This document shows, in pieces, positions 2,135 to 64,000 of a stretch of 64,000 nucleotides of DNA (positions are counted from its first letter, which is position 1; each line of letters begins with the position of its first letter). The stretch spans positions 310,001 through 374,000 of the forward strand of contig NZ_CP132957.1 of NCBI RefSeq assembly GCF_030863805.1, in the 5' to 3' direction. This stretch comes from Kineothrix sp. MB12-C1. GTDB lineage: Bacteria > Bacillota > Clostridia > Lachnospirales > Lachnospiraceae. The notes under the pieces are model-generated. The model made no database searches, had not been told where the DNA came from, and worked only from the letters and a program-made list of their open reading frames with translations. Position numbers and translations under genes: made by a program.

Positions 2135-4167
2135 GCTATCGTCACCATCCCAACAGATTGTAATTCAATATTTGATTCAATTTCATTATAAGAAACAACG
2201 ATCAAATCTCTATAATAATCTTCTGTCAACCGTTTAAAATACATACGTACAATCGGTGACGTAATTATAATAGGATTCTTTCCCAGATTCTCCAACTTCT
2301 GTACTTCATCTCCTACCGCCTTGATAACAGCCTTTGTCTTATCAGGATCCAGTGTCAAGTATGCCCCCTGTTCCGTCTGTTTTACACTATTCATAATTTC
2401 TTGTTCAAGTTTCGGATCTATCGTTACCACACTTGTCGTCTCATTTGCCGGGAAATATTTGCCGGATATCGCCCGTTTCAAGCTCTGTCGTACATATTCT
2501 GTTAAAATATCCGTATCTCTCGTCGTTGCCGCATAATCCGCCAACGTCTCAAAAACAGTAAGCAAATCTCGAATGGAAATGCCTTCCTTCAACATATTCT
2601 GCAGTACCTTCTGGATTTCTCCCACACCGAGCAGCTTGGGTACCAATTCTTCCACAAGAGAAGGGTTGTTCTCCTTCATATTATTAACAAGATTCTGTAC
2701 ATCCTGTCTCGTAAGAAGCTCGGAAATATGCTGTCTGATAATCTCTGTCAGATGCGTCGCAATAATAGATGGCGGATCTACCACCGTATAGCCGAGGCTC
2801 TCTGCGCGTTCCCTTTGTCCTTCCGTAATCCAGATTGCTGGTAGATGGAAGGAAGGTTCAAAGGTAGGAATACCGGTAATTTCTTCCTCTACATACCCTG
2901 GATTCATGGCCATATAATGATCGAATAAAATCTCACCTTCACTAACCTGAACACCTTTTATCTTAATGATATACTGATTCGGGTTCAATTGTATATTATC
3001 CCTCAAACGGATAATCGGAACAACAGTTCCAAGCTCAAGGGCTATCTGCCTTCTAATCATAACGACACGATCCAAGAGGTCTCCGCCTTGATTCACGTCA
3101 GCAAGGGGAATAATCCCATAACCGAATTCCAGCTCGACGGGATCCACCTGTAGCAAACTCGTTACATTCTCAGGCTGCCGGATCTCCTCCGCAGCTATTT
3201 CATCCATATCCACCTCTGCATCTATCTTCGCCGTCTCAATAGTTCCTGCCATCACTCTTCCGCAGATAATGAACACAAGTCCCATTGTAACGAAAACTAA
3301 CGCATTTAATGGGGTAATAATACCGAGTACTGCCAAAACAGCTCCTACGAAATACAGTACCCTGGGCACACCGAATAACTGACTAATTAATACCGTACCG
3401 AAATCCGCATCCTTCGAACCTTTCGTCACCAGAATACCGGTGGAAAGTGATATTAAAAGAGATGGTATCTGGCTCACAAGCCCATCGCCTATCGTAAGGA
3501 TAGTATACTTGTCCAATGCCCCTGACATATCCATACCCTGACGAAGCACACCCATCGCAATACCACCTACAATATTAACTACGGAAATAATTAATCCAGC
3601 GATAGCATCTCCCTTTACATACTTAACCGCACCGTCCATGGAACCGAAGAAACTGGCTTCTTCCTGTATCTTATCACGCCTCCTCTTCGCTTCCGCATCT
3701 GTAATCGCACCGGTATTTAAGTCCGCATCGATAGCCATCTGTTTACCCGGCATAGCATCCAATGTAAACCTCGCTGTTACCTCGGCCACACGCTCTGAAC
3801 CCTTATTGATAACCATGAACTGGATCAATATTAAAATAATAAATATGATCGAACCGATGATAAGGTCACCACCACCTACAAAGTTTCCGAATACCTGAAT
3901 AACATTACCCGGATCTCCAGTGGATAAAATCAACTTAGTGGACGATACGTTAAGGGCGATTCGAAAGATAGTCGTAAATAGCAGAATCGTCGGAAAAAAT
4001 GACAGATCCAATACCTCCTTTGCAAACATACACCCGAACATAACAGCAAACGCCACAGCTATATTAAAAGCGAGTAAAATATCGAGCAGCCAGGCCGGAA
4101 CTGGCACAATAAACATAACAAATGCCGACAGCACATATAACGCAATGCCGATATCAGCCCTTTTCAT
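2131..4167 (-). CDS. flhA: FlhA, flagellar type III export gate protein
   Basis: A 678-residue export-gate protein. The first ~310 residues contain about eight hydrophobic segments, and the FHIPEP-family signature is seen as RFTLDAMPGKQMAIDADLN near residue 150. The rest is the cytoplasmic domain that docks substrates, chaperones and the FliI/FliH ATPase. The start ATG at 4167 is preceded by GAGAGGAGGAG. It lies between flhB (20-base gap) and flhF (4-base overlap), the usual order flhB-flhA-flhF-flhG. Length and motifs are normal. Confidence 0.96.
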   Translation of the reverse strand: MKRADIGIALYVLSAFVMFIVPVPAWLLDILLAFNIAVAFAVMFGCMFAKEVLDLSFFPTILLFTTIFRIALNVSSTKLILSTGDPGNVIQVFGNFVGGGDLIIGSIIFIILILIQFMVINKGSERVAEVTARFTLDAMPGKQMAIDADLNTGAITDAEAKRRRDKIQEEASFFGSMDGAVKYVKGDAIAGLIISVVNIVGGIAMGVLRQGMDMSGALDKYTILTIGDGLVSQIPSLLISLSTGILVTKGSKDADFGTVLISQLFGVPRVLYFVGAVLAVLGIITPLNALVFVTMGLVFIICGRVMAGTIETAKIDAEVDMDEIAAEEIRQPENVTSLLQVDPVELEFGYGIIPLADVNQGGDLLDRVVMIRRQIALELGTVVPIIRLRDNIQLNPNQYIIKIKGVQVSEGEILFDHYMAMNPGYVEEEITGIPTFEPSFHLPAIWITEGQRERAESLGYTVVDPPSIIATHLTEIIRQHISELLTRQDVQNLVNNMKENNPSLVEELVPKLLGVGEIQKVLQNMLKEGISIRDLLTVFETLADYAATTRDTDILTEYVRQSLKRAISGKYFPANETTSVVTIDPKLEQEIMNSVKQTEQGAYLTLDPDKTKAVIKAVGDEVQKLENLGKNPIIITSPIVRMYFKRLTEDYYRDLIVVSYNEIESNIELQSVGMVTIA

Positions 4168-50133: not shown

Positions 50134-50596
50134 TTATTAGCTCCTGTTCTTACGTTTCTTTATTTCTTTTCGTGCTTTCCTGATTGATTGTGATTGTATA
50201 AGAATCCAAGCAGCAAGTCAACTACTCAAAAAGCCAATATCGCAAAATGCTTACTTCGAGGATAAAATGCGTATCTCGGGGATAAATCATGTACAAAAAT
50301 TATATTTTTATTTAAAATACAGTCAATAGCTTTACTCATAACATATAATTCTTACAATTTATTTTTTGTATAAGGTTTGATAAGTATATTTTGTATTACA
50401 GCATGTATTTTTCAACGATTTCAAAATATGAAAGCGCGCAGTTGGAATTGTTGCAAAAATAAAATGAGGAGACGCAAAACAAACTTGAGTAGGTAATTGT
50501 GAAACACCCAAAAGATACTCGATATGAATCGACATTTTAGTCATTTCTATGTTTCTCAGGCACCTATCAAACCAAACAGTAAAAGGAGAAGAAAAA
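50134..50596. other. 463-base AT-rich divergent intergenic stretch with imperfect direct repeats
   Basis: It separates the minus-strand acyltransferase from the plus-strand precursor gene and must hold both promoters, but I see no near-consensus pair for the precursor. Two 21-base imperfect direct repeats (ACTTCGAGGATAAAATGCGTA at 50253-50272, and one at 50273-50293 sharing GGGATAAA and TGTA-type ends) are spaced two helical turns apart, as an operator could be. No gene is seen. Confidence 0.45.
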
Positions 50597-50758
50597 ATGA
50601 AGGAAATGAAAAAGACAAAGAAATTGAACAAGAATAGTAATGTTATGAAAAATACTATCAGAGCGTATGCATGTGCTTGTGAAACACATGGTTGTAACGA
50701 ATCGTGGCAAGACTACGGGATGCGAGTGAATACCAGAGGAGCAGGACGTCAAGTATAA
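50597..50758 (+). CDS. Cys-containing RiPP precursor peptide
   Basis: A 53-residue peptide. The Lys/Asn-rich leader (residues 1-22) ends MKNTIRAYACAC, and the core has Cys26, Cys28 and Cys33, then a Trp/Tyr/Arg-containing tail. AAAAGGAGA ten bases upstream fixes the ATG at 50597; the longer open frame to 50549 has no ribosome binding site. The KNT..AYAC motif resembles the CLI_3235/TIGR04065 family of clostridial putative bacteriocins, and a radical SAM enzyme follows. Modification of the Cys residues, such as thioether links, is expected but not shown. Confidence 0.82.
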   Translation: MKEMKKTKKLNKNSNVMKNTIRAYACACETHGCNESWQDYGMRVNTRGAGRQV

Positions 50759-50807
50759 TGATACTACTTCTGCCAAACAGATAAACGTATCTAATACAAC
50801 ATAGTTA

Positions 50808-50845
50808 AGAATAAGGATATTTGTTTTTACAAATATCCTTATTCT
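50808..50845 (+). terminator. Strong hairpin between precursor and maturase (attenuator-like)
   Basis: A perfect 17-base-pair stem, AGAATAAGGATATTTGT with ACAAATATCCTTATTCT, around TTTT (50825-50828). The stem is followed by an A/T-mixed stretch, not a pure T-run, so read-through to the maturase is likely. It would give more precursor mRNA than enzyme mRNA, common for RiPP loci. Confidence 0.7.
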
Positions 50846-50870
50846 ATATAAATTTATAGGAGGCCATCGG

Positions 50871-52253
50871 ATGAACCCTATTTATAAGACATTTTCAACG
50901 TTAAAAGGATTCTACGTTTATGATAGAGGTACCAATTCCATTATTAACCTACAAAAAGAAGAATTTGATCAATTGAATAAATATGATAATGAAACAATTA
51001 TACAATTTAGGGAAAAGGGCTATTTGGAGGATAATACTATTGAAAAAATATGGCATTCTGACATGAATTATCTTGAATATTACCTTCGAGATAGTCTAGA
51101 GCATCTCACCATACAATTAACACAAAATTGTAATCTAAGATGCAGTTATTGTCCTTATACTGGAGGATATGATAATAGAAGGCATTTTAACAAAGCCACT
51201 TCTATAGAGACAATACAAAAAGGAATTGACTATCTATTCACTCATTCTCAAAATACAACACAACTTTCAATTGGATTTTATGGGGGTGAACCATTGTTGG
51301 AAATCCCTTTGCTTAAGAAAGCCGTTGCATACATAGAAGAAATAAAAGAGGGAAGAAATGTTTACCTCACTCTGACCACCAATGGAACTTTACTATCGGA
51401 TGATAATGTGGAATATCTTATAAAAAAAGATATCCATGTTCTTCTTAGTCTGGATGGCGCAAAGGAATATCATGATGCTAACAGAGTATTTCCTAATGGT
51501 AAAGGTTCCTTTGATGTTATTATGGAAAAACTCCGCCATCTAAAGCAACAGTATCCGGCGTTTTTTTCCAAACTTATGATCAACTCTGTTATCAGCACCA
51601 ACAATGATCTTTCCTGTACTAACGATTTTTTTAATGCAAATCATGTTTTGGAAGAATTGAACGTAAACATGAATACGATAAATGAAAACAACTCTAAAAC
51701 TATCATACAATATGATGAAAATTTTAAAATAATAGATGATTTCGAAACATGTAAATCATATCTATATATGATCGGAAAGATTTCTCAGAGGCATGTGTCA
51801 AAGTTATATAAATTGAATGAGGGGAAAATATACAGTACATATAAAATACTAAAACCTTATAAAATGCAAAAAAAGGAATCTCATCCTGGCGGCCCATGTC
51901 TTCCTGGAGTTACCCGCCTCTTTATGGATGTGAATGGATATTTCTATCCTTGCGAAAGGATTAGTGAAACATCTGAAATCATGCGAATCGGTCATATTAA
52001 TCAAGGAATTGACCTGAAAAAAGCAAAATATCTGCTTAATGTAGGTTCCGTCACAGAAGAAGAGTGTAAAAATTGTTTTGCATTTAATTTTTGCAAAGCT
52101 TGTTGCGCATGTGCTGATGGAAATACAGAACTATCAAGGGAAAAGAAACTTACTTATTGTGACGGTATCCGATATATGGCATTAGAAGACATGAAGCTAA
52201 TTACAATGCTTGAAGAATTTAACTATAAATTTACCACATCAGCATATAAATGA
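50871..52253 (+). CDS. Radical SAM/SPASM peptide maturase (CcpM-like)
   Basis: A 460-residue radical SAM enzyme. The cluster motif is LTQNCNLRCSYCPY with Cys87, Cys91 and Cys94; GGEPLLE follows, and the C-terminal SPASM region contains Cys-rich segments (CLPGVTRLFMDVNGYFYPC and CKNCFAFNFCKACCAC) for auxiliary clusters. The first ~80 residues may be a RiPP-recognition domain. I recall this family as TIGR04068 (Cys-rich peptide radical SAM maturase). AGGAGG lies seven bases before the ATG. It is expected to act on the precursor encoded just upstream. Confidence 0.9.
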   Translation: MNPIYKTFSTLKGFYVYDRGTNSIINLQKEEFDQLNKYDNETIIQFREKGYLEDNTIEKIWHSDMNYLEYYLRDSLEHLTIQLTQNCNLRCSYCPYTGGYDNRRHFNKATSIETIQKGIDYLFTHSQNTTQLSIGFYGGEPLLEIPLLKKAVAYIEEIKEGRNVYLTLTTNGTLLSDDNVEYLIKKDIHVLLSLDGAKEYHDANRVFPNGKGSFDVIMEKLRHLKQQYPAFFSKLMINSVISTNNDLSCTNDFFNANHVLEELNVNMNTINENNSKTIIQYDENFKIIDDFETCKSYLYMIGKISQRHVSKLYKLNEGKIYSTYKILKPYKMQKKESHPGGPCLPGVTRLFMDVNGYFYPCERISETSEIMRIGHINQGIDLKKAKYLLNVGSVTEEECKNCFAFNFCKACCACADGNTELSREKKLTYCDGIRYMALEDMKLITMLEEFNYKFTTSAYK

Positions 52254-52261
52254 GGATAAAT

Positions 52262-53374
52262 ATGAATAAAAAATTAATGATATACCCTTTTAACAAACGC
52301 GTAAATTCAATTGCCAAATATGCCCAATTATTAGAAAATTACATATTAATTGCAGCAGTATCTCCCAAAAGCTATGGATATGAGGGAAAAGATATTTCTT
52401 GCATAGACGGTAGTTCATTTGTCGGTATCACAATTACTTCTGCTTTTCAGGAAAGTCTTGAGAAATGTGACAGCGTCCTTTTTTCTGCTAGTACTTTTCT
52501 TATAGATTTGAGTTATTATGAGGAGCGGATACAAGAGGCTTTTAACTATAACAAAGAAGTATTAATTACAAAGGAATTAGCAGAGAATTTTATCCTTAAC
52601 AAAAAAAATATTCCATCTAATGTGAAAGTACTTGGAGACAATCCCCCTGGCAAAAAAATATCATATACCGAAATAAAACATATTCAAGAGATTCCTGTTC
52701 CAGTTATGACAATTTTTCAAATAGGAGAATTTTGTAACGGTTTTGATACTCAACTACTGATAACCAAAAGATTTGAGGAAGAGGGCTATCGAGTAAGCAA
52801 AATCAGTTCCTGCCCACTCGGCAGCATATTCGGTATGCATATGCTGCCAGATTATATCTACCAATCAAATATGACTTACGAAGATAAAATTGTTAGCTTT
52901 AATCATTTTCTTATTTCCATTATTGATGAGGAGCAGCCCGATATCCTTCTATTGCAAATTGAAGAAGCCATTCTACCATATAATGATAAAGTTACTAATC
53001 ACTTTGGAGTAATTCCTGAAATCGTTGCTCATGCTGCCCAAGCAGATATAGGTATATTGAGTCTTTACTATAATGATTTCTATGACAAAGAATATCTTGA
53101 CCATTTAAGAGCCTTTTGCAGATATACGCTGAATATAGAAATAAATTACATTAATATGGCAAATACAACTATGTCAATTCAGGAATTTGATATAATGAAG
53201 CCCATACATTATGTCCTCGTTGATTGGAATATAGTAATCCACTCTATTTCCTCTGATTATAAAAACTATGACTGCCTATTTTTTAACACTTACGATTTAA
53301 GCAGTGTGGATACTGTATATTATGATATAATAAATCATCTTTCACAAAATAAAGAAACCGTTAGAATCTGGTAG
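52262..53374 (+). CDS. Peptide maturation system protein (TIGR04066-like)
   Basis: A 370-residue protein that I recognise as TIGR04066 family, found beside clostridial Cys-rich peptide maturases. It starts MNKKLMIYPFNKRVNSIAKY; its second half (from about IPVPVMTIFQIGEFCNG) resembles the P-loop part of DUF1611 proteins but lacks a clear Walker A. GAGG precedes the ATG at 52262; the frame is open 12 bases further, overlapping the maturase stop. The S8 peptidase at 62471-63943 has a related C-terminal domain. Precise function is unknown. Confidence 0.8.
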   Translation: MNKKLMIYPFNKRVNSIAKYAQLLENYILIAAVSPKSYGYEGKDISCIDGSSFVGITITSAFQESLEKCDSVLFSASTFLIDLSYYEERIQEAFNYNKEVLITKELAENFILNKKNIPSNVKVLGDNPPGKKISYTEIKHIQEIPVPVMTIFQIGEFCNGFDTQLLITKRFEEEGYRVSKISSCPLGSIFGMHMLPDYIYQSNMTYEDKIVSFNHFLISIIDEEQPDILLLQIEEAILPYNDKVTNHFGVIPEIVAHAAQADIGILSLYYNDFYDKEYLDHLRAFCRYTLNIEINYINMANTTMSIQEFDIMKPIHYVLVDWNIVIHSISSDYKNYDCLFFNTYDLSSVDTVYYDIINHLSQNKETVRIW

Positions 53375-53387
53375 AAAGGATACATAT

Positions 53388-53648
53388 ATGATAGATAAAA
53401 AGACGATAATACACCAGCTTAAAGATGTAATATATAATTTATTGCAGATAACGATTTCTGATGAAAACACTAATTTATTTAGTAATAAGATTGATATTTC
53501 TCCGGTAAATATGGTTTATTTATTACTAGAGATGGAGAAAGAATTTTCCATTACAATAAATGATCAATTTTTTGACGAACTTCCCTGTATTACTATCAAT
53601 CATCTAGCAGATGCCATATGTATTTGTACCGAAACAAATATATCATAA
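53388..53648 (+). CDS. Acyl-carrier-like small protein (TIGR04069-like)
   Basis: An 86-residue protein with an acyl-carrier-like helical pattern. The region ISPVNMVYLLLEMEKEFSI aligns with the DSL-centred helix of ACPs, but the residue at the phosphopantetheine serine is Pro (or the Ser is shifted by one), so it may not be modified. Such acyl-carrier-related proteins accompany TIGR04066 systems; their role is unknown. AAAGGATAC precedes the ATG. A decayed copy lies at 58324-58419. Confidence 0.78.
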   Translation: MIDKKTIIHQLKDVIYNLLQITISDENTNLFSNKIDISPVNMVYLLLEMEKEFSITINDQFFDELPCITINHLADAICICTETNIS

Positions 53649-53678: not shown

Positions 53679-55913
53679 ATGAAAAAGATATCAAACAAAT
53701 GTTATGTATTTTGCCCTATCCTACTAATAGCATTTCTTTTGTATGGATGTGGAGCCAGTAACAGCGAGGTTGGTAACCAAAATGGAACTATCATTACACA
53801 GGAAGATGTCTTATATGTAACTCAAGATATCCCTCTACCGGCGTATTCTTCTTTTGATGGAGCCTATTCCAATGGAAATGACTTATACTATGCAGCCGCT
53901 GAATTCAATGAAAGTTCCCAAACATTTCAGACCTCATTCTATTCCTTAAAACAAGGAGATGCGGACCCCCAGATGAACTTCTCTTTAGCAGAAAATCAAA
54001 GAGTACAGAGTATGACTATGGACTCTGAAGGAAATATTTATTACCTTGGTTATGAAGAGCCTTCATTGAAAAATTCAGAAAGTCCAGCGTCTACTGGCAC
54101 CATGCTTTACAAGTCAGATCCTAAGGGAATGCCCATTCTAGAATTAAATCTGTCAGAATATACCAAGGGACAGGATCAAACCATGGTTCAAGATTTATCT
54201 GTAGATGGAGAAAGCCGCATTGTACTGTGCGACTCCAACCAAAATATCTACATGCTTAATCAAAATGGTGAATTGTTGTTTGAAGTCAGAGCAGACGGTC
54301 GGATTTATGACTTATGCAACAGCAATGGAAAGGTTCTAGTTGTCCACAGCAGCATGGATGGTATGGAGGTCAGAGAAGTAGATATTGATGGCAAAAAACT
54401 GTCCTCAAAGTTAATAAGTGGTATCCCTGGAACGCAGTTTCATATGACGGCCGGAAGTAATGGTAACCTGTTGATCGCTTCCGAAGAAAGTGTTTATCAG
54501 TATATGTTTGAAACTAGAGAGACTCTCAAAAAGTTCGACTGGCAAACCCATGATTTTACCGGAATCATAACCGGTATGTTATTACCCTATGGAGAAAATG
54601 GCATTTTGGTTATCAATCAAGATTATGCTGCTATCCCGATGAAGGCAAAAGCCACGGTCTTTCGAGTAGCCACTGAAGGAGAAACCATGGTAGAGGGAAA
54701 GAAAGTAATTACTCTGGGAATAACTGATAAACTCAAATGGGTACGCGGAGATGCCATTGCCAATTTTAATAAGATTAATCCAAATTACAAGATTGAGATC
54801 AAAAATTATCAAGGGGATTACACTCGCCTTAACACAGAGCTAATAGCGGGCAATGGTCCTGACATCCTGGCACTACCCTCCTACCGTGCGAACCTCCTCG
54901 CCGAAAAAGGAGTTCTGGAAGACTTGAATCCTTATTTCGATGAAGACGAGACCATTAACCGCAGTGACTACTACGAAAATGTCCTAAAGGCTTTTGAGGA
55001 AGAAGGACATCTATATGTCATGCCAATTACTTTTCGAATCAGTACGATGGTTGGAAAGAACTCGTTTTTAGGCGGACGAGAGGGCTGGACTCTGGAGGAG
55101 TTTATCTCCTTTGCGGAAAATTGCCCGGAAGGAACACCTCTCTTTGATAATACCTCTAAAAGCGGTGTAATGCGCTTACTAAAATATGCCAATTCCCGAC
55201 AATTGGTGGATATGAAAAATACAGAAAACCCTCTCAATCGAGAGTTACTTATAAAGATGCTTACCTTTGCCAATCAGTATGACAGTGATGAACGGTATGT
55301 GCAAGAAATTAATATGCTCAACCATAAGATTCTAAATGGACAGGTAATGCTCCCTGATGTGATTATTGTGACAGCATATGATTATTTTGGATACTCCTGC
55401 ATGTTTGGAGAACCGGTGACCTTCATCGGATATCCAACGGAAGACGGGAACGGAAGTTTGATTATTTCCGACAATACCTATTCCATCAATTCAGACAGCG
55501 AATACAAGGATGTTGCATGGGAATTTATCAGTACATTATTATCTGACAAGGGGCAAGAAATTATGAGATTTGGTGATGTTCCGCTAAAAAAAGATAAGTG
55601 GAGTCTTGTCACACATGCAATCAGCTGGACTGAAAACAGCATTGTTAGGTCAGCATCAATGATTGGCGATAGTGATGATAGCACTAATGACATTGCATAC
55701 TATTTTCCTGCCGGTAGTAAGGCAAGCAGCGAAGATGCTCAGAGAATTTTGGATTTAATACAAAATGCCGATACAGCAGTACACATATCTCCAGACATCG
55801 ATAAAATTATTCAAGAAGAAGCTGTTTTTTATTTCAATGGTACTAAGCCAATAGAAGAAGTGGTAGATGTTATTGAGAACAGAATCAGAACCTATGTTAA
55901 CGAAATGCAATAA
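53679..55913 (+). CDS. Lipoprotein 1: propeller-like plus family-1 solute-binding domains
   Basis: A 744-residue lipoprotein with a signal ending LLYGC, the lipid-modified Cys24. Residues about 45-340 form repeated Tyr/Asp/Asn-containing beta segments (NIYYLGYE, SNQNIYMLNQNGELLF) like a beta-propeller. From about residue 343 it is a family-1 extracellular solute-binding protein (FNKINPNYKIEIKNYQGDY, then NTELIAGNGPDILAL). The end is FNGTKPIEEVVDVIENR. No permease is encoded nearby. It is the first of three tandem paralogues. It may recognise, present or neutralise the peptide product; this is inference. Confidence 0.85.
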   Translation: MKKISNKCYVFCPILLIAFLLYGCGASNSEVGNQNGTIITQEDVLYVTQDIPLPAYSSFDGAYSNGNDLYYAAAEFNESSQTFQTSFYSLKQGDADPQMNFSLAENQRVQSMTMDSEGNIYYLGYEEPSLKNSESPASTGTMLYKSDPKGMPILELNLSEYTKGQDQTMVQDLSVDGESRIVLCDSNQNIYMLNQNGELLFEVRADGRIYDLCNSNGKVLVVHSSMDGMEVREVDIDGKKLSSKLISGIPGTQFHMTAGSNGNLLIASEESVYQYMFETRETLKKFDWQTHDFTGIITGMLLPYGENGILVINQDYAAIPMKAKATVFRVATEGETMVEGKKVITLGITDKLKWVRGDAIANFNKINPNYKIEIKNYQGDYTRLNTELIAGNGPDILALPSYRANLLAEKGVLEDLNPYFDEDETINRSDYYENVLKAFEEEGHLYVMPITFRISTMVGKNSFLGGREGWTLEEFISFAENCPEGTPLFDNTSKSGVMRLLKYANSRQLVDMKNTENPLNRELLIKMLTFANQYDSDERYVQEINMLNHKILNGQVMLPDVIIVTAYDYFGYSCMFGEPVTFIGYPTEDGNGSLIISDNTYSINSDSEYKDVAWEFISTLLSDKGQEIMRFGDVPLKKDKWSLVTHAISWTENSIVRSASMIGDSDDSTNDIAYYFPAGSKASSEDAQRILDLIQNADTAVHISPDIDKIIQEEAVFYFNGTKPIEEVVDVIENRIRTYVNEMQ

Positions 55914-55992
55914 TGCTATATTCTTTTCAATATATAAGCCTTATCAATTTAGCAAAAGTTATCACAGTTATTTAGGGAGGAGAGACCTTGAG

Positions 55993-58200
55993 ATGAAAAT
56001 ACAAGTAAATAGTTCTTATGCTATTCATTATATTTCATTTGTAATGCTATTCCTGTGCGGATGTGGAAACGAGAATCTTTCAGTAATCAACCAAAAAGAA
56101 ACTATTATTAAGCAGGAAGAAATCAGCTATATGACTCAAGATATTTCCTTACCGGAATATGACTCTTTAGATGGAGCCTATTCCGATGGGAGCACCCTTT
56201 ATTATGCTGCAACGGGATTCGAACAAACCTCTCAACAAAATAGAACCACATTCTATTCTTTAAAAGAGGGAGATTCTATTCCCGAAATACTCTTTTCTCT
56301 ACCTGAAAATCAAAGCGTTACAACGATAACCATGGATGAAAACAAAAATATCTATTACCTTGGGCACGATGTAAGCAAACCTAATGATGACCATCCCATA
56401 CTTTACAAGGTTGATTTAAAAGGCACGCTGCTGCTCACGTTAAGTCTATCAGAATATATCAAGGAACAGGAACAAGCCGTAATCCAGGGTATAGCCGTAG
56501 ATGGCGAAAACTATATGGTACTGTTTGATTCCAACCAAAATATTTTTATATTTAATCCAAACGGAGAACTCCTATTTAAGGATAGAATGCCTGATATCAT
56601 CTATAACATATGCAGCAACAATGGAAAAATATTTGTAGGATATCGTAGTAGCAATGGGATGTCCATTAAAGAAATTGATATTCCCGGAAGAAAACTTACC
56701 GCAAAATTAGAGCATATTGTTCCTGGTGATAAATTCTATATGACTTCTGGCTCAGGAAAAAATCTATTAATTTCTTCAGCGGAAAGTCTTTATGAGTATT
56801 CTTTGGAAGAGGAATCACTTGTTAAAAAATTTGATTGGCAGACTTATGATTTTGCTGGTATTTCTGCTGGTATTTTGCTTCCTCTGAATACAAACGGTAT
56901 ATTAGCAATCAGCCGTAACTATAGTGCTGTTCCAATGAAAGTAGAGGTAGTTGCTTTTCGGGAAGCATCTGAGGGAGAAATTGCCCTTCCTGAAAAGCTA
57001 GTACTTACACTTGGAACGCTCTCTTCTCTCCCATCAGGCCTCAACGCTGAAATTGTTTATTTTAATAAAAATAACCCCGAGTATAAAATCGAGGTAATAA
57101 ACTATGAAGAGGATTTTATGCGACTCAACACTGAAATCATGGCTGGAAATGGCCCGGATTTTCTCTCAATGCCTTTCGATAGGATAGCCTCTTTTGCAAC
57201 AAGAGGTGTCGTAGAGGATTTAAATCCCTATTTCGATGAAGATAAAACTCTTAACCGCAGTGATTTTCTGGAAAATATTCTAAATGCATTTGAGACAGAT
57301 GGATTTCTCTATGGAATCCCTGCTATTAAATTTAGGATTTATACACTTGTCGGAAAATCATCACTTCTGGAAAATAAATCCAGTTGGGATTTAGACGAAT
57401 TAATTGCTTTTACCAAGAACTTTTCAGAAGAAACGGATGTTTTTGATTCTACCTCTAAAAGTGGCGTTTTGCGTCTAATTAAAACTGCTTATACCAATCA
57501 GCTGGTAAACATAGATGATACCATTACCCCTCTTAATTGCGAATTGCTTATAAAAATGCTTTTGTTTGCTAATCAATATGCAAACGATGACCAATATATT
57601 TATGATGCCAATTTATCTGGCAAAATCATGGGAGAGCAACTAATACTCCCAGATATTATCGTAACATCAGGTCATGATTTTTTTGGTTGTTCCAGCTTAT
57701 TTGGCGAACCCGTTACTTATATCGGATACCCCACTGTGGAGGGAAATGGAAATCTGATAGTTTCCTCTCAAACCTTCGCCATAAACTCCGGTAGTAAATA
57801 CAAAGACATCTCGTGGAAGTTTATTAGTACTCTCCTATCGAAAGAATCCCAAATGAGAATGGAAAAAAACTATACAACAATGGGATTTCACCTTAGAAAA
57901 GAAGCCTTGGAAGAACATTTTTCATATATTAAGAAAAATGCCAGCGGCTATGCTATGTGTCTTCTTATCAGCGATCACTACACTGCCATCAAATTCAATC
58001 TTGGAGATGTAAAAGAGGAACACATTGATCAGATTCGTTCCTTAATTCAAAATGCAGATACTACACTGATAACTTTACCTGATATCGATAAGATTATAGA
58101 AGGAGAAGCTATTTTCTATTTCAACGGTACCAAACCTGTAGAAGAAGTTGTTGATGTTATCGAGAATAGAGTCAGAACCTATGTTAACGAAATGAAATAA
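55993..58200 (+). CDS. Lipoprotein 2: paralogue of the same family
   Basis: A 735-residue lipoprotein starting MKIQVNSSYAIHYISFVML with lipobox FLCGC (Cys24). The layout is the same as in lipoprotein 1: propeller-like segments (NIYYLGHD, SNQNIFIFNPNGELLF) then a solute-binding domain (FNKNNPEYKIEVINYEEDF; NTEIMAGNGPDFLSM). An open frame begins at 55867, but GGGAGG just before ATG 55993 and the signal peptide decide the start. It differs from lipoprotein 1 in a C-terminal insert around residues 620-680. Confidence 0.85.
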   Translation: MKIQVNSSYAIHYISFVMLFLCGCGNENLSVINQKETIIKQEEISYMTQDISLPEYDSLDGAYSDGSTLYYAATGFEQTSQQNRTTFYSLKEGDSIPEILFSLPENQSVTTITMDENKNIYYLGHDVSKPNDDHPILYKVDLKGTLLLTLSLSEYIKEQEQAVIQGIAVDGENYMVLFDSNQNIFIFNPNGELLFKDRMPDIIYNICSNNGKIFVGYRSSNGMSIKEIDIPGRKLTAKLEHIVPGDKFYMTSGSGKNLLISSAESLYEYSLEEESLVKKFDWQTYDFAGISAGILLPLNTNGILAISRNYSAVPMKVEVVAFREASEGEIALPEKLVLTLGTLSSLPSGLNAEIVYFNKNNPEYKIEVINYEEDFMRLNTEIMAGNGPDFLSMPFDRIASFATRGVVEDLNPYFDEDKTLNRSDFLENILNAFETDGFLYGIPAIKFRIYTLVGKSSLLENKSSWDLDELIAFTKNFSEETDVFDSTSKSGVLRLIKTAYTNQLVNIDDTITPLNCELLIKMLLFANQYANDDQYIYDANLSGKIMGEQLILPDIIVTSGHDFFGCSSLFGEPVTYIGYPTVEGNGNLIVSSQTFAINSGSKYKDISWKFISTLLSKESQMRMEKNYTTMGFHLRKEALEEHFSYIKKNASGYAMCLLISDHYTAIKFNLGDVKEEHIDQIRSLIQNADTTLITLPDIDKIIEGEAIFYFNGTKPVEEVVDVIENRVRTYVNEMK

Positions 58201-58323
58201 GGCTATCTTATCACTTTATTTGTTATGAGAAATAGGTATATAAATTATATGCTATCCTTGAAAGTCGTCATTTCACAAGAACTTCAATCTATTCATAAGC
58301 AACATGAGAGGGAATGCTAACAT

Positions 58324-58419
58324 GAGTTTCCCATTATAATAAGCGACCAATTTATTGACTCGCTTCCTGCCATAACCATCAATCATTTGGCAGATGCAAT
58401 TTGTATACATTCTAAGTAG
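58324..58419 (+). pseudogene. Remnant of a second acyl-carrier-like gene
   Basis: The plus-strand frame reads EFPIIISDQFIDSLPAITIN then HLADAICIHSK and a stop. By hand alignment 22 of 31 residues match the C-terminus of the acyl-carrier-like protein at 53388-53648 (EFSITINDQFFDELPCITIN, HLADAICI). There is no start, and the frame is interrupted by a stop just upstream. It lies 35 bases before lipoprotein 3, the same relative place as the intact gene before lipoprotein 1, indicating duplication of the pair followed by decay of this copy. Confidence 0.8.
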
Positions 58420-58454
58420 TAATAAATTAAAACTCATAAAGGAGAATCCGAAAA

Positions 58455-60662
58455 ATGAAAAGGAAATTTATTAATTATTATATACTATATTGCATTTTAG
58501 CGGTAACGATATTCCTATGTGGGTGCGAAAACAGAATCGGCACTGCCGATAATCAAAAAGATGATGGAATAAAAGCCGAGGAAACCACTTATTTAGCCCA
58601 ACCACTTTCTCTTCCAGAATATGCCTCTTTAGATGGAGCATATTCTGACGGGAATAACTTACATTATGCCGCTGCTAAATTGGATCAGACTTCTCAAAAA
58701 TATGAAACTGCTTTCTACATCTTGAAAGAAGGAGAAAAAGAACCTAAGATGCTTTTCCTTTTACCAGAAAACCAAAGGGTTTTTAAAATGACCATGGATA
58801 AGGATGAGAACATTTATTATCTTGGCTATGAAGAATTTTCATCTGATGACGATAATCTGACGATATCTGACATTATTCTTTATAAGTTGGACCAACGCGG
58901 AACTCCCCTTCTGGTTCTGGATTTAACAAATTATATGGGAGGAGTTGATCAATCCATGGTTCAAGGAATTGCAGTGGATGGAGAAAAGCGTATTATTCTA
59001 TTTGCTTCTAATCAAAATATCTATGTATTTGATTCGAGTGGCAGTCTATTGTTTAAAGTCAAAGCAGATGGCAGGATTTACGATATATGTTGCAGTAACG
59101 GTAAGATATTTGCCGCATATGACGGCATCGATGGAATTGAAATTAAGGTGGTCGATATCCTCAATAAAAAACTCTCATCCAAATTGGCTCAAACTATACC
59201 AGGAAATCAATTTCACATGGTATCAGATAGTAATGAAAATCTTCTAATGGCTACTGAAAACAGCGTTTATACTTATAATCTGGAAACAGAAGAAATAATT
59301 AAGAAATTCGATTGGCAAACCTATGATTCCACAGGAATTACTGCCGGGATCCTACTGCCGTTCAGAGAAAAAGGAGTCCTAGCAATCAATCGTGACTATA
59401 CCTCTTTTCCGATGAAGGTAGAAGCAACATTCTTCAAGGAGGCTGTTGAAGGAGAAAGCATTATACCGGAAAAAACTGTTCTTACTCTCGGTACAGATTA
59501 TTCTCTTTCCAACGCCATGAATCAAGGTATTGTAGCATTTAACCATTCCAATTCTGATTATAAAATTGAGATAAAGATTTATAATGAAAATTATGCTCAA
59601 CTCAATACTGAAATCATAGCCGGTAACGGACCCGATATTTTAGTTCTATCTTTTGATAAAATTGACCAGCTTTCTGCAAAAAATGTTCTGGAAGATTTGA
59701 ATCCTTACTTTAGTGAGGATGTGACTTTGGATCGAGATGACTTCTTGGAAAATATACTCAATTCCTTCGAGACCGATGGACACATCTATGGAATGCCTTT
59801 TAGCTTTAATATCGATACACTTGTAGGAAAAACCTCGATTCTGAAGGATAAGTCAAGTTGGAATCTGGATGAATTGATTGCCTTTACAGAAAGTTTCCCG
59901 AAAGGAACAGATATTTTTGTTGACACTTCCAAAAGTGGGGTTTTCCATTTACTTAAAACTGCTTATACCAGTCAATTAGTGGATATGAATAATATGGAAA
60001 TCCCTCTTAATCGAGAGTTGCTTATAAAGATGCTTACTTTTGCCAATCGGTATGAAGACGACGAACGATATACTTATAACGGTCTCTTGGATATAAGGGC
60101 TATGGACGGCCAATTGATATTGCTAGATACTAATGTATTTAGCGGAATTACTTATCGAGCTTGTTCAGATAGCGTATTCGGAGAACCTGTAACTTTCATC
60201 GGATATCCCACTGTACAAGGAAATGGCAACTTGATTAACTGTGAATGGGCTCTAGCCATTAATTCTAGTAGTAAATACAAAGATACCGCCTGGACATTGA
60301 TCAGTATGCTCCTATCGGAGGAAATACAGGCAAAAATTGAACGAGACTTAGGATCTATGGGATTTCCAATCAGAAAAGATTCTTTAGAAGAGCATTTCAT
60401 ACATGTGGCAGAATGGGAATATAATGATTTTCTCATTAATTACAATTTTTTACGCCAAAGCGGAAAGCCGGCCATCGAGGAAGAAATTGAGCCTATTCGC
60501 AACCTGATCCAAAGTGCGGATACAGCATTCCGTTCATCACCTGATATCGATAAGATTATCGAGGAGGAATCTATCTTCTATTTCAATGGCACCAAACCAG
60601 TAGAAGAAGTTGTCAATGTTATTGAAAATAGGATCAGAACCTATGTAAACGAAAACAACTAA
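58455..60662 (+). CDS. Lipoprotein 3: paralogue of the same family
   Basis: A 735-residue lipoprotein starting MKRKFINYYILYCILAVTIF, lipobox FLCGC (Cys24). The propeller-like segments (NIYYLGYEEF; SNQNIYVFDSSGSLLF) and the solute-binding part (FNHSNSDYKIEIKIYNENY; NTEIIAGNGPDILVL) match the other two. AAAGGAGAATCC precedes the ATG. It ends at a bidirectional terminator. Its C-terminal ~50 residues are almost the same as in the others (FNGTKPVEEVVNVIENR). Confidence 0.85.
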   Translation: MKRKFINYYILYCILAVTIFLCGCENRIGTADNQKDDGIKAEETTYLAQPLSLPEYASLDGAYSDGNNLHYAAAKLDQTSQKYETAFYILKEGEKEPKMLFLLPENQRVFKMTMDKDENIYYLGYEEFSSDDDNLTISDIILYKLDQRGTPLLVLDLTNYMGGVDQSMVQGIAVDGEKRIILFASNQNIYVFDSSGSLLFKVKADGRIYDICCSNGKIFAAYDGIDGIEIKVVDILNKKLSSKLAQTIPGNQFHMVSDSNENLLMATENSVYTYNLETEEIIKKFDWQTYDSTGITAGILLPFREKGVLAINRDYTSFPMKVEATFFKEAVEGESIIPEKTVLTLGTDYSLSNAMNQGIVAFNHSNSDYKIEIKIYNENYAQLNTEIIAGNGPDILVLSFDKIDQLSAKNVLEDLNPYFSEDVTLDRDDFLENILNSFETDGHIYGMPFSFNIDTLVGKTSILKDKSSWNLDELIAFTESFPKGTDIFVDTSKSGVFHLLKTAYTSQLVDMNNMEIPLNRELLIKMLTFANRYEDDERYTYNGLLDIRAMDGQLILLDTNVFSGITYRACSDSVFGEPVTFIGYPTVQGNGNLINCEWALAINSSSKYKDTAWTLISMLLSEEIQAKIERDLGSMGFPIRKDSLEEHFIHVAEWEYNDFLINYNFLRQSGKPAIEEEIEPIRNLIQSADTAFRSSPDIDKIIEEESIFYFNGTKPVEEVVNVIENRIRTYVNENN

Positions 60663-60755: not shown

Positions 60756-62474
60756 TTATGTTCTAACAGCCATATTGACCATCTCTGCAAAACTCGGATT
60801 TCCATTATACAATTCTTCATAAGTTCCGCTTACAATGCCTTCCTGATTGATTAACACAATATTATCCACATCTTTCAAAATCTCCTGTTTATGCGTGACT
60901 ACAATTACTGTTTTTTCTTTCAGTCTGGTATGAAGCAAATTATTAATCTGCATTTCTGAATATACGTCAGTATTAGATGTCGCCTCATCTAAAATAATAA
61001 TGGGTTTATCATGAATTAATGCCCGCGCCATCGCAATCTTTTGTTTCTGTCCTCCTGACAGCCATGAACCATTCTGCCCCACTAAATAGTCTAACGATAC
61101 TTCCTCTATATAATCCTTTAATCCGCTATCGATGACTGCCTGCATAATTTTATCTTCGCTCACCTCTTTATATAAGCAAATATTATTACGGATCGTATCA
61201 TCAAATAAATATATTTGCTGACTTACTATCGATATCATTTCCCGATACTCCTGCAAGGCAAAAGATAGGATATTCTTATCCCCTAGTAAAATTTGACCCG
61301 AGTCAGGAATATACATCCGCGTAAGCAATCCTATGATGGTGGATTTCCCTGAACCATTTTTACCGATCAAAGCTGTCTTACTTCCCTTTTCAAATATTAC
61401 ATTTACATGATTTAAAATCGGCTTATCTTGTATGTAAGAAAAACTAACATTCCGTAATTTTAAATCATCAAATTCAGGGGATACAGAAGCGTTGCCTTCT
61501 TCAAACTCTTCCGGTAACTCCATAAATTTATAGAACCGTTTTGTAGAAGGGAGAATCCCTGATAGCATATATCCAATATTTAAGATACCTGAAATCGGAC
61601 TGGTCACGTAGGTGCTATAGGTAATAAAAGCAAAAACACTTCCTACAGACAATTGCAGGTCAAATACCAGATTAGCCCCCATAATATACAACACCATAAT
61701 CAAAAGCTGAATCATCAGGGTATCCACGGAAAGATTGTAAACTCCCAGTATATTCATCCTTTTTTTCTGATGGATTACTTTTTTCTGCCTGTTCTCAAAC
61801 TCCTGCTTCTTTACACCTGCAAGATTAAAAAGCTTAATCTCATGAATTCCCCCAATCGTATCCCCAAACCATTTCGCATAACCCTGAGCTTCTTTGATGA
61901 ATTGATCCATATATGATTTTCTTTTTTTTACAAGGTATTTCATAAAGAAATATTTACAAGGAATATAAAGAAGTACCAATAAAGTAAGCTTGCCATTAAT
62001 AATAAATAAACCTATGATACCTCCGGTGATGCTAAAGATTTGAGTTATAATGAAAAAAGTGGCTCCATCAGTAATGGAAACCATACGCATAATATCTGTA
62101 TCCAGATTATTGAAAATCTCGGTATAATTTTTTCCGGTAAAATAATCCGTTTTTAATTTTACCAAATGCTGAAAAGCCTTCTCCATCAAGGAATATTCCA
62201 TTTTAGCAGAAATATCCGTTCGCTTTTTTTCCTTTATCAGATCAATAACGGCATTAATAACAGGGAGAATCGCTGATAATACAACTAATTGAATCAATAG
62301 CTGCTTATTTCCTCCGATGAATCCATAATCCATAATATTCCTACTCAGCAAAGGGATACAGAGATTAAGACCGGTACTGACAATTAGACAAGCAAATATA
62401 ATACAAATTGTTTTTTTATAATCTCCTAAAAGCCTAACCAGATTTTTCACTGCATCCTTATCGCTCATTTTCAT
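60756..62474 (-). CDS. ABC exporter (fused membrane and ATPase domains)
   Basis: A 572-residue half-exporter. The N-terminal domain has about six membrane helices (up to about residue 310), and the ATPase domain carries Walker A IGKNGSGKST (371-379), signature LSGGQ (472-476), Walker B PIIILDEATS (491-500) and His528. There is no N-terminal C39 peptidase, unlike many bacteriocin exporters, so leader removal must be done elsewhere. The ATG overlaps the S8 peptidase stop by four bases. It probably exports the matured peptide, or provides immunity. Confidence 0.9.
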   Translation of the reverse strand: MKMSDKDAVKNLVRLLGDYKKTICIIFACLIVSTGLNLCIPLLSRNIMDYGFIGGNKQLLIQLVVLSAILPVINAVIDLIKEKKRTDISAKMEYSLMEKAFQHLVKLKTDYFTGKNYTEIFNNLDTDIMRMVSITDGATFFIITQIFSITGGIIGLFIINGKLTLLVLLYIPCKYFFMKYLVKKRKSYMDQFIKEAQGYAKWFGDTIGGIHEIKLFNLAGVKKQEFENRQKKVIHQKKRMNILGVYNLSVDTLMIQLLIMVLYIMGANLVFDLQLSVGSVFAFITYSTYVTSPISGILNIGYMLSGILPSTKRFYKFMELPEEFEEGNASVSPEFDDLKLRNVSFSYIQDKPILNHVNVIFEKGSKTALIGKNGSGKSTIIGLLTRMYIPDSGQILLGDKNILSFALQEYREMISIVSQQIYLFDDTIRNNICLYKEVSEDKIMQAVIDSGLKDYIEEVSLDYLVGQNGSWLSGGQKQKIAMARALIHDKPIIILDEATSNTDVYSEMQINNLLHTRLKEKTVIVVTHKQEILKDVDNIVLINQEGIVSGTYEELYNGNPSFAEMVNMAVRT

Positions 62475-63961: not shown

Positions 63962-64000
63962 CTAGCATGAATTATATATGAATTCATTTACCCTTTCTTT
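63962..64000 (-). CDS. Possible 3' end of another gene (partial)
   Basis: On the minus strand the frame from the window edge reads KERVNEFIYNSC then TAG (63962-63964); the other two frames have early stops. It would end 18 bases before the S8 peptidase start. Too short to identify; it may be chance. Confidence 0.25.
   Translation of the reverse strand, partial: KERVNEFIYNSC

What the first reader, a model, noticed from the sequence alone, without database searches (positions are those of the whole stretch)
50597..53648. Compact RiPP locus: Cys-containing precursor, radical SAM maturase, TIGR04066-like protein and an acyl-carrier-like protein
The sequence directly shows a 53-residue peptide with a basic leader and Cys26, Cys28 and Cys33, then a radical SAM/SPASM enzyme, a maturation-system protein and a carrier-like protein in one operon. 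The families resemble the clostridial CLI_3235-type cassettes as I recall them (TIGR04065/66/68/69). The core here (C-A-C-x4-C, followed by a charged Trp/Tyr/Arg tail) looks shorter in Cys than I would expect for that family, so the product may be new.
Basis: partly seen in the sequence, partly recalled or inferred. Interest (0 to 1): 0.82.

Follow-up and report, generated by a model that had tools for sequence, protein, structure and literature searches.

The report
Radical-SAM peptide cassette with decommissioned helpers
This is a complete gene set for making and exporting a small cysteine-containing modified peptide of a known bacterial type, and its two unexplained helper proteins look like former enzymes that have lost their catalytic residues but are still kept.

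Summary
The finding is real. The four genes lie where stated. Three reach curated NCBIfam cut-offs: precursor TIGR04065 (26.1, cut-off 26), maturase TIGR04068/CcpM (530, 500) and TIGR04066 (278, 200). The acyl-carrier-like protein scores only 34.8 against TIGR04069 (70). The locus is larger than reported: three tandem lipoproteins, an exporter and a cytoplasmic subtilisin follow to 63943, then a LytTR-like regulator. It is a new member of the known CLI_3235/CcpM cassette; a relative, SacP23, is antibacterial (PMC10731318). Three cysteines is the family minimum, not outside it. The new part concerns the helpers. TIGR04066 is predicted to have the DUF1611/DgcN fold with a ruined P-loop, and its family is homologous to the C-terminal domain of the cassette subtilisins. 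The ACP-like protein lacks the phosphopantetheine serine, as do 81 of 90 family members counting it. In sister systems where the TIGR04066 domain is fused to the subtilisin and keeps its P-loop, the ACP keeps its serine (13 of 13); in CcpM cassettes no TIGR04066-ACP pair keeps both Gly-Lys and Ser (0 of 80). I infer a once ATP- and carrier-dependent module reduced to an adaptor. Chemistry, activity and the adaptor role are untested.

The parts
50406..50461 (+). Long hairpin upstream of the precursor; its loop ATGAAAGCGCGCAGTT is identical in A. aminovalerica; candidate regulatory element
   Evidence: Folds in both species, z only -1.9 and -1.6. The core occurs once in the window and once exactly in its genome, plus one site with two mismatches; among the 135 loci then held, exact matches only in this genome and A. 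aminovalerica. No Rfam match.
50597..50758 (+). Precursor peptide, 53 aa (ATG at 50606 also possible and closer to the family start): basic leader, Cys26/28/33, tail GMRVNTRG shared in part with A. aminovalerica
   Evidence: TIGR04065 26.1 bits, cut-off 26; orthologue in L042:8189-8407
50808..50845 (+). 17-bp stem-loop between precursor and maturase genes, present with base changes in A. aminovalerica; probably sets the precursor to maturase ratio (inference)
   Evidence: -21.9 kcal/mol, z -5.3; relative z -5.2; alignment
50871..52253 (+). CcpM, radical SAM/SPASM maturase, 460 aa
   Evidence: TIGR04068 530 bits, cut-off 500; CxxxCxxC at C87/C91/C94 and seven further Cys invariant in 19 aligned sequences; profile match to PDB 5wgg over positions 5-448 of 471
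52250..53374 (+). TIGR04066 protein, 374 aa: DUF1611/DgcN-like fold with degenerate P-loop (Gly164 where 72 of 85 aligned members have Lys)
   Evidence: 278 bits, cut-off 200; model pLDDT 92.9; PDB 2obn 4.6e-12 (TM 0.64), 2g0t 8e-9 (0.57), 7xrj 2.3e-8 (0.49); columns
53388..53648 (+). ACP-related protein, 86 aa, Pro in place of the phosphopantetheine Ser (a Ser stands one residue before)
   Evidence: TIGR04069 34.8 bits, cut-off 70; alignment to the genome's own ACP; family profile matches PDB ACPs to 2.2e-9
53679..55913 (+). Lipoprotein 1, 744 aa, C-terminal solute-binding-protein domain; immunity or receptor (inference)
   Evidence: PF13416, PF01547; lipobox-like LYGCG read; 53% identical to lipoprotein 3
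55867..58200 (+). Lipoprotein 2 (likely start 55993), paralogue
   Evidence: PF13416, PF01547; 56% identical to lipoprotein 3
58455..60662 (+). Lipoprotein 3, paralogue, 735 aa
   Evidence: Solute-binding-type NCBIfam matches below cut-off; paralogue of the other two; matches solute-binding proteins in the PDB from residue 353 on
60756..62474 (-). ABC exporter, 572 aa
   Evidence: MsbA/peptide-exporter type, below the cut-offs, matches start at the membrane domain; orthologue beside CcpM in L042
62471..63943 (-). S8 subtilisin, 490 aa, catalytic domain from about residue 3 with no room for a signal peptide (read from the sequence), triad Asp10/His48/Ser190; residues about 206-490 belong to a TIGR04066-like domain family; predicted leader peptidase
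   Evidence: NF049966 QhpE 81 bits, cut-off 165; alignment; hhalign of 14 such C-terminal domains with TIGR04066: 97.1%, E 6e-11 over 163 columns; model
63962..64000 (-). 3' end of a LytTR-type response regulator gene (248 aa, whole gene L034:1963-2709)
   Evidence: domain assignment by reading its sequence, no HMM run; similar genes within 6.5 kb of 12 of 95 CcpM ORFs

Best explanation
The locus is a complete CLI_3235/CcpM-type RiPP cassette. Shown: gene content, family assignment of precursor, maturase and TIGR04066 protein, conserved neighbours, intact radical SAM, SPASM and protease residues, absent phosphopantetheine Ser, absent P-loop, homology of the TIGR04066 family to the C-terminal domain of the protease family. 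Inferred: CcpM binds the basic leader through its N-terminal region and makes thioether link(s) from Cys26/28/33 to residues of the tail. The TIGR04066 protein and the ACP-related protein form a non-catalytic adaptor that holds or hands over the peptide between maturase and protease. The cytoplasmic subtilisin, which carries its own TIGR04066-like domain, removes the leader. The ABC protein exports the product. The LytTR-like regulator controls expression, and the lipoproteins give immunity or act as receptors. The helpers descend from a DUF1611-fold P-loop protein and a true ACP, still intact in sister cassettes.
For: NCBIfam hits. Neighbours within 6.5 kb of 95 distinct CcpM-profile ORFs of 400 aa or more: TIGR04066 in 91, ACP in 86, ABC (any ABC hit) in 72, S8 in 57. 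Gene fusions CcpM-TIGR04066 (L053, L118) and S8-TIGR04066. S8 C-terminal domains against TIGR04066 97.1%, E 6e-11, against 0.5% for the catalytic domain as control. DUF1611/DgcN fold. Ser at the carrier column in 9 of 90 ACP-like proteins and 0 of 7 new ones (read). Strict P-loop at its place in 1 of 85 stand-alone TIGR04066 proteins and 0 of 8 new ones. P-loop and [DE]S together in 13 of 13 P-loop fusion systems. Purifying selection. SacP23: same core gene set, antibacterial (PMC10731318).
Against: The ACP-like protein misses the TIGR04069 cut-off. A Ser stands one residue before the aligned carrier position here, and 19 of 90 members have Ser in that neighbouring column. The P-loop/Ser contrast is essentially one phylogenetic split: the tree puts the 85 stand-alone, 11 P-loop-fused and 4 lachnocin-type domains on three separate branches, so counts are not independent events. 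Seven stand-alone pairs keep Gly-Lys only and five keep Ser only. S8 lies within 6.5 kb in only 57 of 95, and this window's own S8 and ABC genes lie further off than that (8.5 kb or more) on the opposite strand. The clean TIGR04066 profile hits nine distinct S8 proteases besides the full fusion L054, but not this window's S8 at E 1e-3. The fold search of the S8 model lists only subtilisins in its top 50, so it gives no independent support for the C-terminal domain. I have no expression, mass or activity data for this locus.
Confidence: 0.72

Rival explanations
1. The ACP-related protein still carries a group in another way and the TIGR04066 protein is an acyltransferase of the DgcN type, so the product is acylated at its new N-terminus.
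For: DgcN structure 7xrj, titled N-acetyltransferase, is among the best fold matches. Sister systems keep P-loop and carrier Ser. A 540-aa protein in L054, with similar ones in L139 and L148, has a faint BtrH_N hit (E 0.07, far below cut-off). SacP23's N-terminus resisted Edman degradation (PMC10731318).
Against: No carrier Ser and no Walker Lys here. SacP23's likely close relatives L075/L076 lack the Ser and an intact P-loop too, so the blocked N-terminus needs another cause.
Confidence: 0.1
2. TIGR04066 is an immunity protein, as proposed for SacP23.
For: The SacP23 authors' annotation (PMC10731318).
Against: It is fused to the maturase or the protease in some genomes and homologous to a protease domain; it has a soluble DUF1611-type fold.
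Confidence: 0.06
3. The cassette is decaying: few Cys, ACP below cut-off, Walker Lys lost, and the product is not made.
For: Three Cys; TIGR04069 34.8 of 70.
Against: Frames open, dN/dS 0.07-0.18 for five genes, maturase cysteines intact, intergenic stem kept with base changes. The closest relative lacks the Walker Lys too.
Confidence: 0.08
4. Protease, exporter and regulator on the minus strand serve a different peptide, and the plus-strand cassette uses others.
For: Opposite strand, separated by three lipoprotein genes.
Against: A. aminovalerica has the same two genes inverted directly after the ACP gene; the genome has one CcpM above cut-off; the protease belongs to a family with a TIGR04066-like domain.
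Confidence: 0.1

Closest known systems
SacP23 cluster of Paenibacillus polymyxa #23 (PMC10731318)
   Same: TIGR04068, TIGR04066, TIGR04069, subtilisin, ABC exporter and a CLI_3235-family precursor
   Different: 61-aa Cys-rich precursor; sigma-24-like and unc-89-like genes in the cluster, no solute-binding lipoproteins listed. L075/L076 precursors match its length (61/42) and core pI (7.73) but not its core mass (4496.8 against 4455)
Roseburia intestinalis L1-82 cluster (PMC4573289)
   Same: TIGR04068, TIGR04066, TIGR04069, subtilase and ABC transporter
   Different: No precursor was found there by its authors
Anaerocolumna aminovalerica DSM 1283 locus (L055, same as L042)
   Same: CcpM 73% identical, same core gene set, same upstream and intergenic hairpins
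   Different: Four core Cys; no lipoproteins between the ACP and exporter genes
Sister cassettes with S8-TIGR04066 fusion and TIGR04463/Clo7bot-like maturase (L054, L136 and others)
   Same: Radical SAM maturase, subtilisin with TIGR04066 domain, ACP, ABC transporters
   Different: P-loop and carrier Ser intact; maturase not CcpM where tested
Lachnocin cassettes (NF038170, NF038169)
   Same: S8-TIGR04066 fusion, short Cys peptide
   Different: No ACP found, no P-loop, other maturase

Membership tests
CLI_3235/CcpM cassette | Precursor over TIGR04065 cut-off | tested here: met
   26.1 against 26, marginal
CLI_3235/CcpM cassette | Maturase over TIGR04068 cut-off | tested here: met
   530.1 against 500
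CLI_3235/CcpM cassette | TIGR04066 protein beside it, over cut-off | tested here: met
   278.1 against 200
TIGR04069 (subunit name only) | Score over cut-off 70 | tested here: not met
   34.8; homologous to the ACP-like proteins of other CcpM cassettes, but not filed under this name
CLI_3235/CcpM cassette | Cys cross-links made by CcpM | not testable with these tools
   Needs mass spectrometry
Acyl carrier protein | Ser for phosphopantetheine | tested here: not met
   Pro at that column, Ser one residue before
DUF1611 (PF07755) P-loop protein | Fold | tested here: met
   Predicted model against 2obn 4.6e-12, TM 0.64
DUF1611 (PF07755) P-loop protein | P-loop GxxxxGKx[ST] and Pfam score | tested here: not met
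   IGEFCNGFD; no PF07755 hit for the window protein
QhpE-type leader subtilisin | NF049966 cut-off 165 | tested here: not met
   81.4
QhpE-type leader subtilisin | Catalytic triad, no signal peptide | tested here: met
   Triad columns; absence of a signal peptide read from the sequence, no program run
Lachnocin | Maturase over NF038170 cut-off 550 | tested here: not met
   190.6
Sactipeptide or ranthipeptide class | Alpha- or beta/gamma-carbon thioether | not testable with these tools
   No chemistry here

The most novel reading that the evidence does not exclude
TIGR04066 and TIGR04069 are a former enzyme pair: a P-loop DUF1611/DgcN-type acyl- or phosphoryl-transferase domain, originally fused to the leader subtilisin, and the carrier protein that fed it, which together modified the peptide end freed by proteolysis. 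Sister radical-SAM systems still run that chemistry. In CcpM cassettes, including this one, both catalytic centres were lost and the pair was kept as an adaptor that couples radical-SAM maturation to leader removal.
Probability: 0.3. Interest if true: 0.75.

Novelty: new member of a known kind. Interest (0 to 1): 0.5.

Why it matters
The cassette type is known, but two of its most constant proteins have carried only 'peptide maturation system' names. A fold, a homologous protease domain and a tied loss of catalytic residues turn them into testable parts. They also mark sister cassettes in which an intact P-loop and carrier serine predict an unrecognised ATP- and carrier-dependent step on a radical-SAM peptide.

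Tried and rejected
Searched Rfam over the whole window and the precursor's upstream region: no match. Looked for the upstream hairpin motif in the 135 loci then held: exact only in this genome and A. aminovalerica; with two mismatches allowed a few scattered chance-like sites. Looked for a specific link of the lipoproteins to CcpM: found near few cassettes (L039, L049, L050 and this locus with the iterated profile; L124 and this locus at the stricter threshold). Other copies in this genome sit with permease-like genes (by reading). In 397 family genomes the listed matches outside this genome are at most 32% identical (two candidates scored per genome). So immunity remains a guess. Precursors were found in 48 of 87 loci only; the others may lie outside the fetched stretch or be too diverged. 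Fitted SacP23's 3404 Da to fragments of L075/L076: several fit, uninformative. PADLOC: only viperin similarity of the radical SAM fold (E 1e-12). The automatic Cys counts mis-trimmed two precursors (L087, L107), so the number with three Cys was read. The regular expression for the ACP serine failed on every row that had an ACP, so serines of the fusion systems were read by eye from the sequences printed. The P-loop test looked only behind residue 200 and so missed the right place in stand-alone proteins; it was redone. Papers: searches for lachnocin, for TIGR04463/Clo7bot/DUF1611/RiPP and for DgcN gave none; one search was swamped by unrelated words. What DgcN does is taken from the PDB title and recall. 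A second structure library was not available.
Full report
What is there. The four genes of the finding are present and open. NCBIfam places the precursor in TIGR04065 (26.1 bits, cut-off 26), the maturase in TIGR04068/CcpM (530.1, cut-off 500) and the third protein in TIGR04066 (278.1, cut-off 200). The small protein resembles TIGR04069 but misses its cut-off (34.8 of 70). CcpM has the radical SAM cysteines C87/C91/C94 and seven further cysteines invariant in 19 aligned sequences, itself included. The profile of that alignment matches PDB 5wgg over positions 5-448 of 471, including the N-terminal region; that 5wgg is CteB, a SCIFF-peptide maturase with a leader-binding N-terminal domain, is recalled.

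The locus is longer than reported. After the ACP gene come three tandem lipoproteins; the first two pass Pfam cut-offs for solute-binding domains, and the third, 53-56% identical to them, was not run against Pfam. On the other strand follow an ABC exporter and an S8 subtilisin, then a LytTR-like regulator (assigned by reading) whose 3' end lies in the last 39 bases of the window. Among 95 distinct CcpM-profile ORFs of at least 400 aa, a TIGR04066 gene lies within 6.5 kb of 91, an ACP gene of 86, an ABC gene of any kind of 72, an S8 gene of 57 and a LytTR-like gene of 12. A 96th ORF, shorter than 400 aa, was left out. The four without TIGR04066 are in L076, L084, L120 and L127; the last three lie at the end of the stretch held. 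The 95 include L054, whose maturase scores only 98 bits against TIGR04068. This window's own S8 and ABC genes are 8.5 kb or more from CcpM and so do not count in those figures. In the closest named relative, Anaerocolumna aminovalerica, exporter and protease follow the ACP gene directly in the same inverted orientation.

Precursor. Candidates were found in 48 of 87 loci, 59 sequences in all. Most share a basic start (MKKLGKK type), then AYAC or similar, then a Cys-rich stretch; C-x-C occurs in at least 56 of 59 (two rows mis-trimmed). Core cysteines range upward from three, median about 5. Three occurs here, in L074 and in four tandem precursors of L064 (read). The A. aminovalerica precursor shares 22 of 50 aligned residues, including the tail GM-x-VNT. 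A 17-bp stem-loop between precursor and maturase genes is present in both species with base changes on the stem. A longer hairpin upstream has an identical 16-base loop in both, but its folding energy is not exceptional.

The TIGR04066 protein. A model from 66 sequences has mean pLDDT 92.9. Its best matches in the PDB are DUF1611 proteins 2obn (4.6e-12, TM 0.64) and 2g0t (8e-9, 0.57), and 7xrj, titled N-acetyltransferase DgcN (2.3e-8, 0.49). PF07755 (DUF1611) is a P-loop domain. In 85 stand-alone TIGR04066 proteins, this one included, the loop is worn down: Lys remains in 72, Gly-Lys in 8, and the strict motif in one, L111 (a whole-protein pattern scan finds L111 alone at that place). The window protein has Gly in place of the Lys, as its closest relative does.

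Link to the protease. A profile built only from single-domain TIGR04066 proteins hits the C-terminal half of nine distinct S8 proteases beside the full fusion L054; this window's S8 is not among them at E 1e-3. Comparing the profile of 14 S8 C-terminal domains, this one included, with TIGR04066 gives 97.1% probability and E 6e-11 over 163 columns, against 0.5% for the catalytic domain as control. The order of strands and helices in the S8 model's C-terminal half resembles that of the TIGR04066 model (my reading), but the Foldseek list for S8 shows only subtilisins in its first 50 rows. Fusions of CcpM with a shortened TIGR04066 domain (L053, L118) and of S8 with TIGR04066 exist. This speaks for a role between maturation and leader removal and against immunity, which was proposed for SacP23.

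The ACP-like protein. The family profile matches true ACPs in the PDB to 2.2e-9. Aligned to the genome's own ACP, the column of the phosphopantetheine Ser holds Pro in 38, Ala in 26 and Ser in 9 of 90 distinct members; the window has Pro, with a Ser one residue before. A shift of the alignment by one would put that Ser in place; the stretch aligns without gaps, and 19 of 90 members share a Ser in that neighbouring column, so I do not favour it.

Sister systems. Fifteen distinct S8-TIGR04066 fusions were read in Lachnospiraceae. Eleven have an intact P-loop of the type GTSSxQGKFTLQL; the five tested pass the PF07755 cut-off. All eleven have an ACP with Asp-Ser or Glu-Ser in the same stretch (sequences). 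Six of their maturases were tested: closest to TIGR04463 or Clo7bot models, or to PapB in L147, all below cut-off. In L139 no maturase was found with the two searches used. The other four fusions have no P-loop and no ACP was found; the one tested is a lachnocin system (846 bits, cut-off 550). As a test outside the first sample I took 13 stretches from genomes of other families of the class; two had been seen before. Two new P-loop fusions have ACPs with Ser, and one new lachnocin-like fusion has neither. Seven of seven new CcpM-type ACPs lack the Ser (read by eye; in L157 no ACP was found). None of eight new stand-alone TIGR04066 proteins has Gly-Lys at the P-loop. The P-loop domains and the stand-alone proteins are homologous over full length (99.9%, E 2.4e-37). 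In 80 stand-alone TIGR04066-ACP pairs, none keeps both Gly-Lys and Ser, seven keep Gly-Lys, five keep Ser and 68 keep neither (five of 85 had no ACP on the same strand within 3.5 kb). A tree puts the three groups on three separate branches, so this is one or two evolutionary events and the counts are not independent.

Interpretation. I read this as a known cassette in which an old carrier-dependent, P-loop module has become an adaptor. Direction is inferred: true ACPs and DUF1611 proteins outside have the residues. What the intact module does in the sister systems is unknown; acylation of the freed peptide end is the boldest reading, helped by the DgcN match. A 540-aa neighbour in L054, with similar proteins in L139 and L148, gives only a faint BtrH_N hit (E 0.07).

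Known work. The name search matched 499 papers, mostly through unrelated uses of one term; of the 20 listed, two hold TIGR04068, 04066 and 04069. Papers with a single such name might be unlisted. In PMC4573289 I read one passage: a Roseburia intestinalis cluster with the maturase, TIGR04066, TIGR04069, subtilase and ABC genes and no precursor. In PMC10731318 I read the abstract, sections 17, 19 and 21 and passages: SacP23, expressed with its eight-gene cluster in Bacillus subtilis, is active against several Gram-positive bacteria, has a main mass peak at 3404 and resists Edman degradation; its cross-links are not known. I found no paper on the fold of TIGR04066 or the missing Ser in the searches; subscription papers are mostly not held.

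Verdict. Observation confirmed, interpretation supported with two corrections, new member of a known kind. The interest lies in the helpers.

Noticed in passing
53679-60662: Three tandem paralogous lipoproteins of about 740 aa with a solute-binding C-terminal half and no permease genes between them; three distant copies (29-30%) lie elsewhere in the genome, near permease-like genes (by reading).
   Followed up: partly
L134:4866-5183 (genome 1749865-1750182): A fragment 67% identical to part of lipoprotein 3, with a stop inside, near a feoB-like gene (by reading): a relic.
   Followed up: no
L054, L136-L139, L142-L144, L147-L151: Sister radical-SAM cassettes with a subtilisin fused to an intact P-loop TIGR04066 domain and a serine-bearing ACP; several have two adjacent ABC transporter genes; proteins like the 540-aa neighbour of L054 also occur in L139 and L148.
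   Followed up: partly
L064:8319-9863: Four CcpM-type precursors, each with three cysteines in C-x-C-x-C, upstream of one maturase gene.
   Followed up: no
L053:9006-11186 and L118:9989-12154: CcpM fused to a shortened TIGR04066 domain in one protein of about 720 aa.
   Followed up: partly
62-24848: Flagellar and motility genes (by reading the ORF list) fill the first third of the window; ordinary.
   Followed up: no
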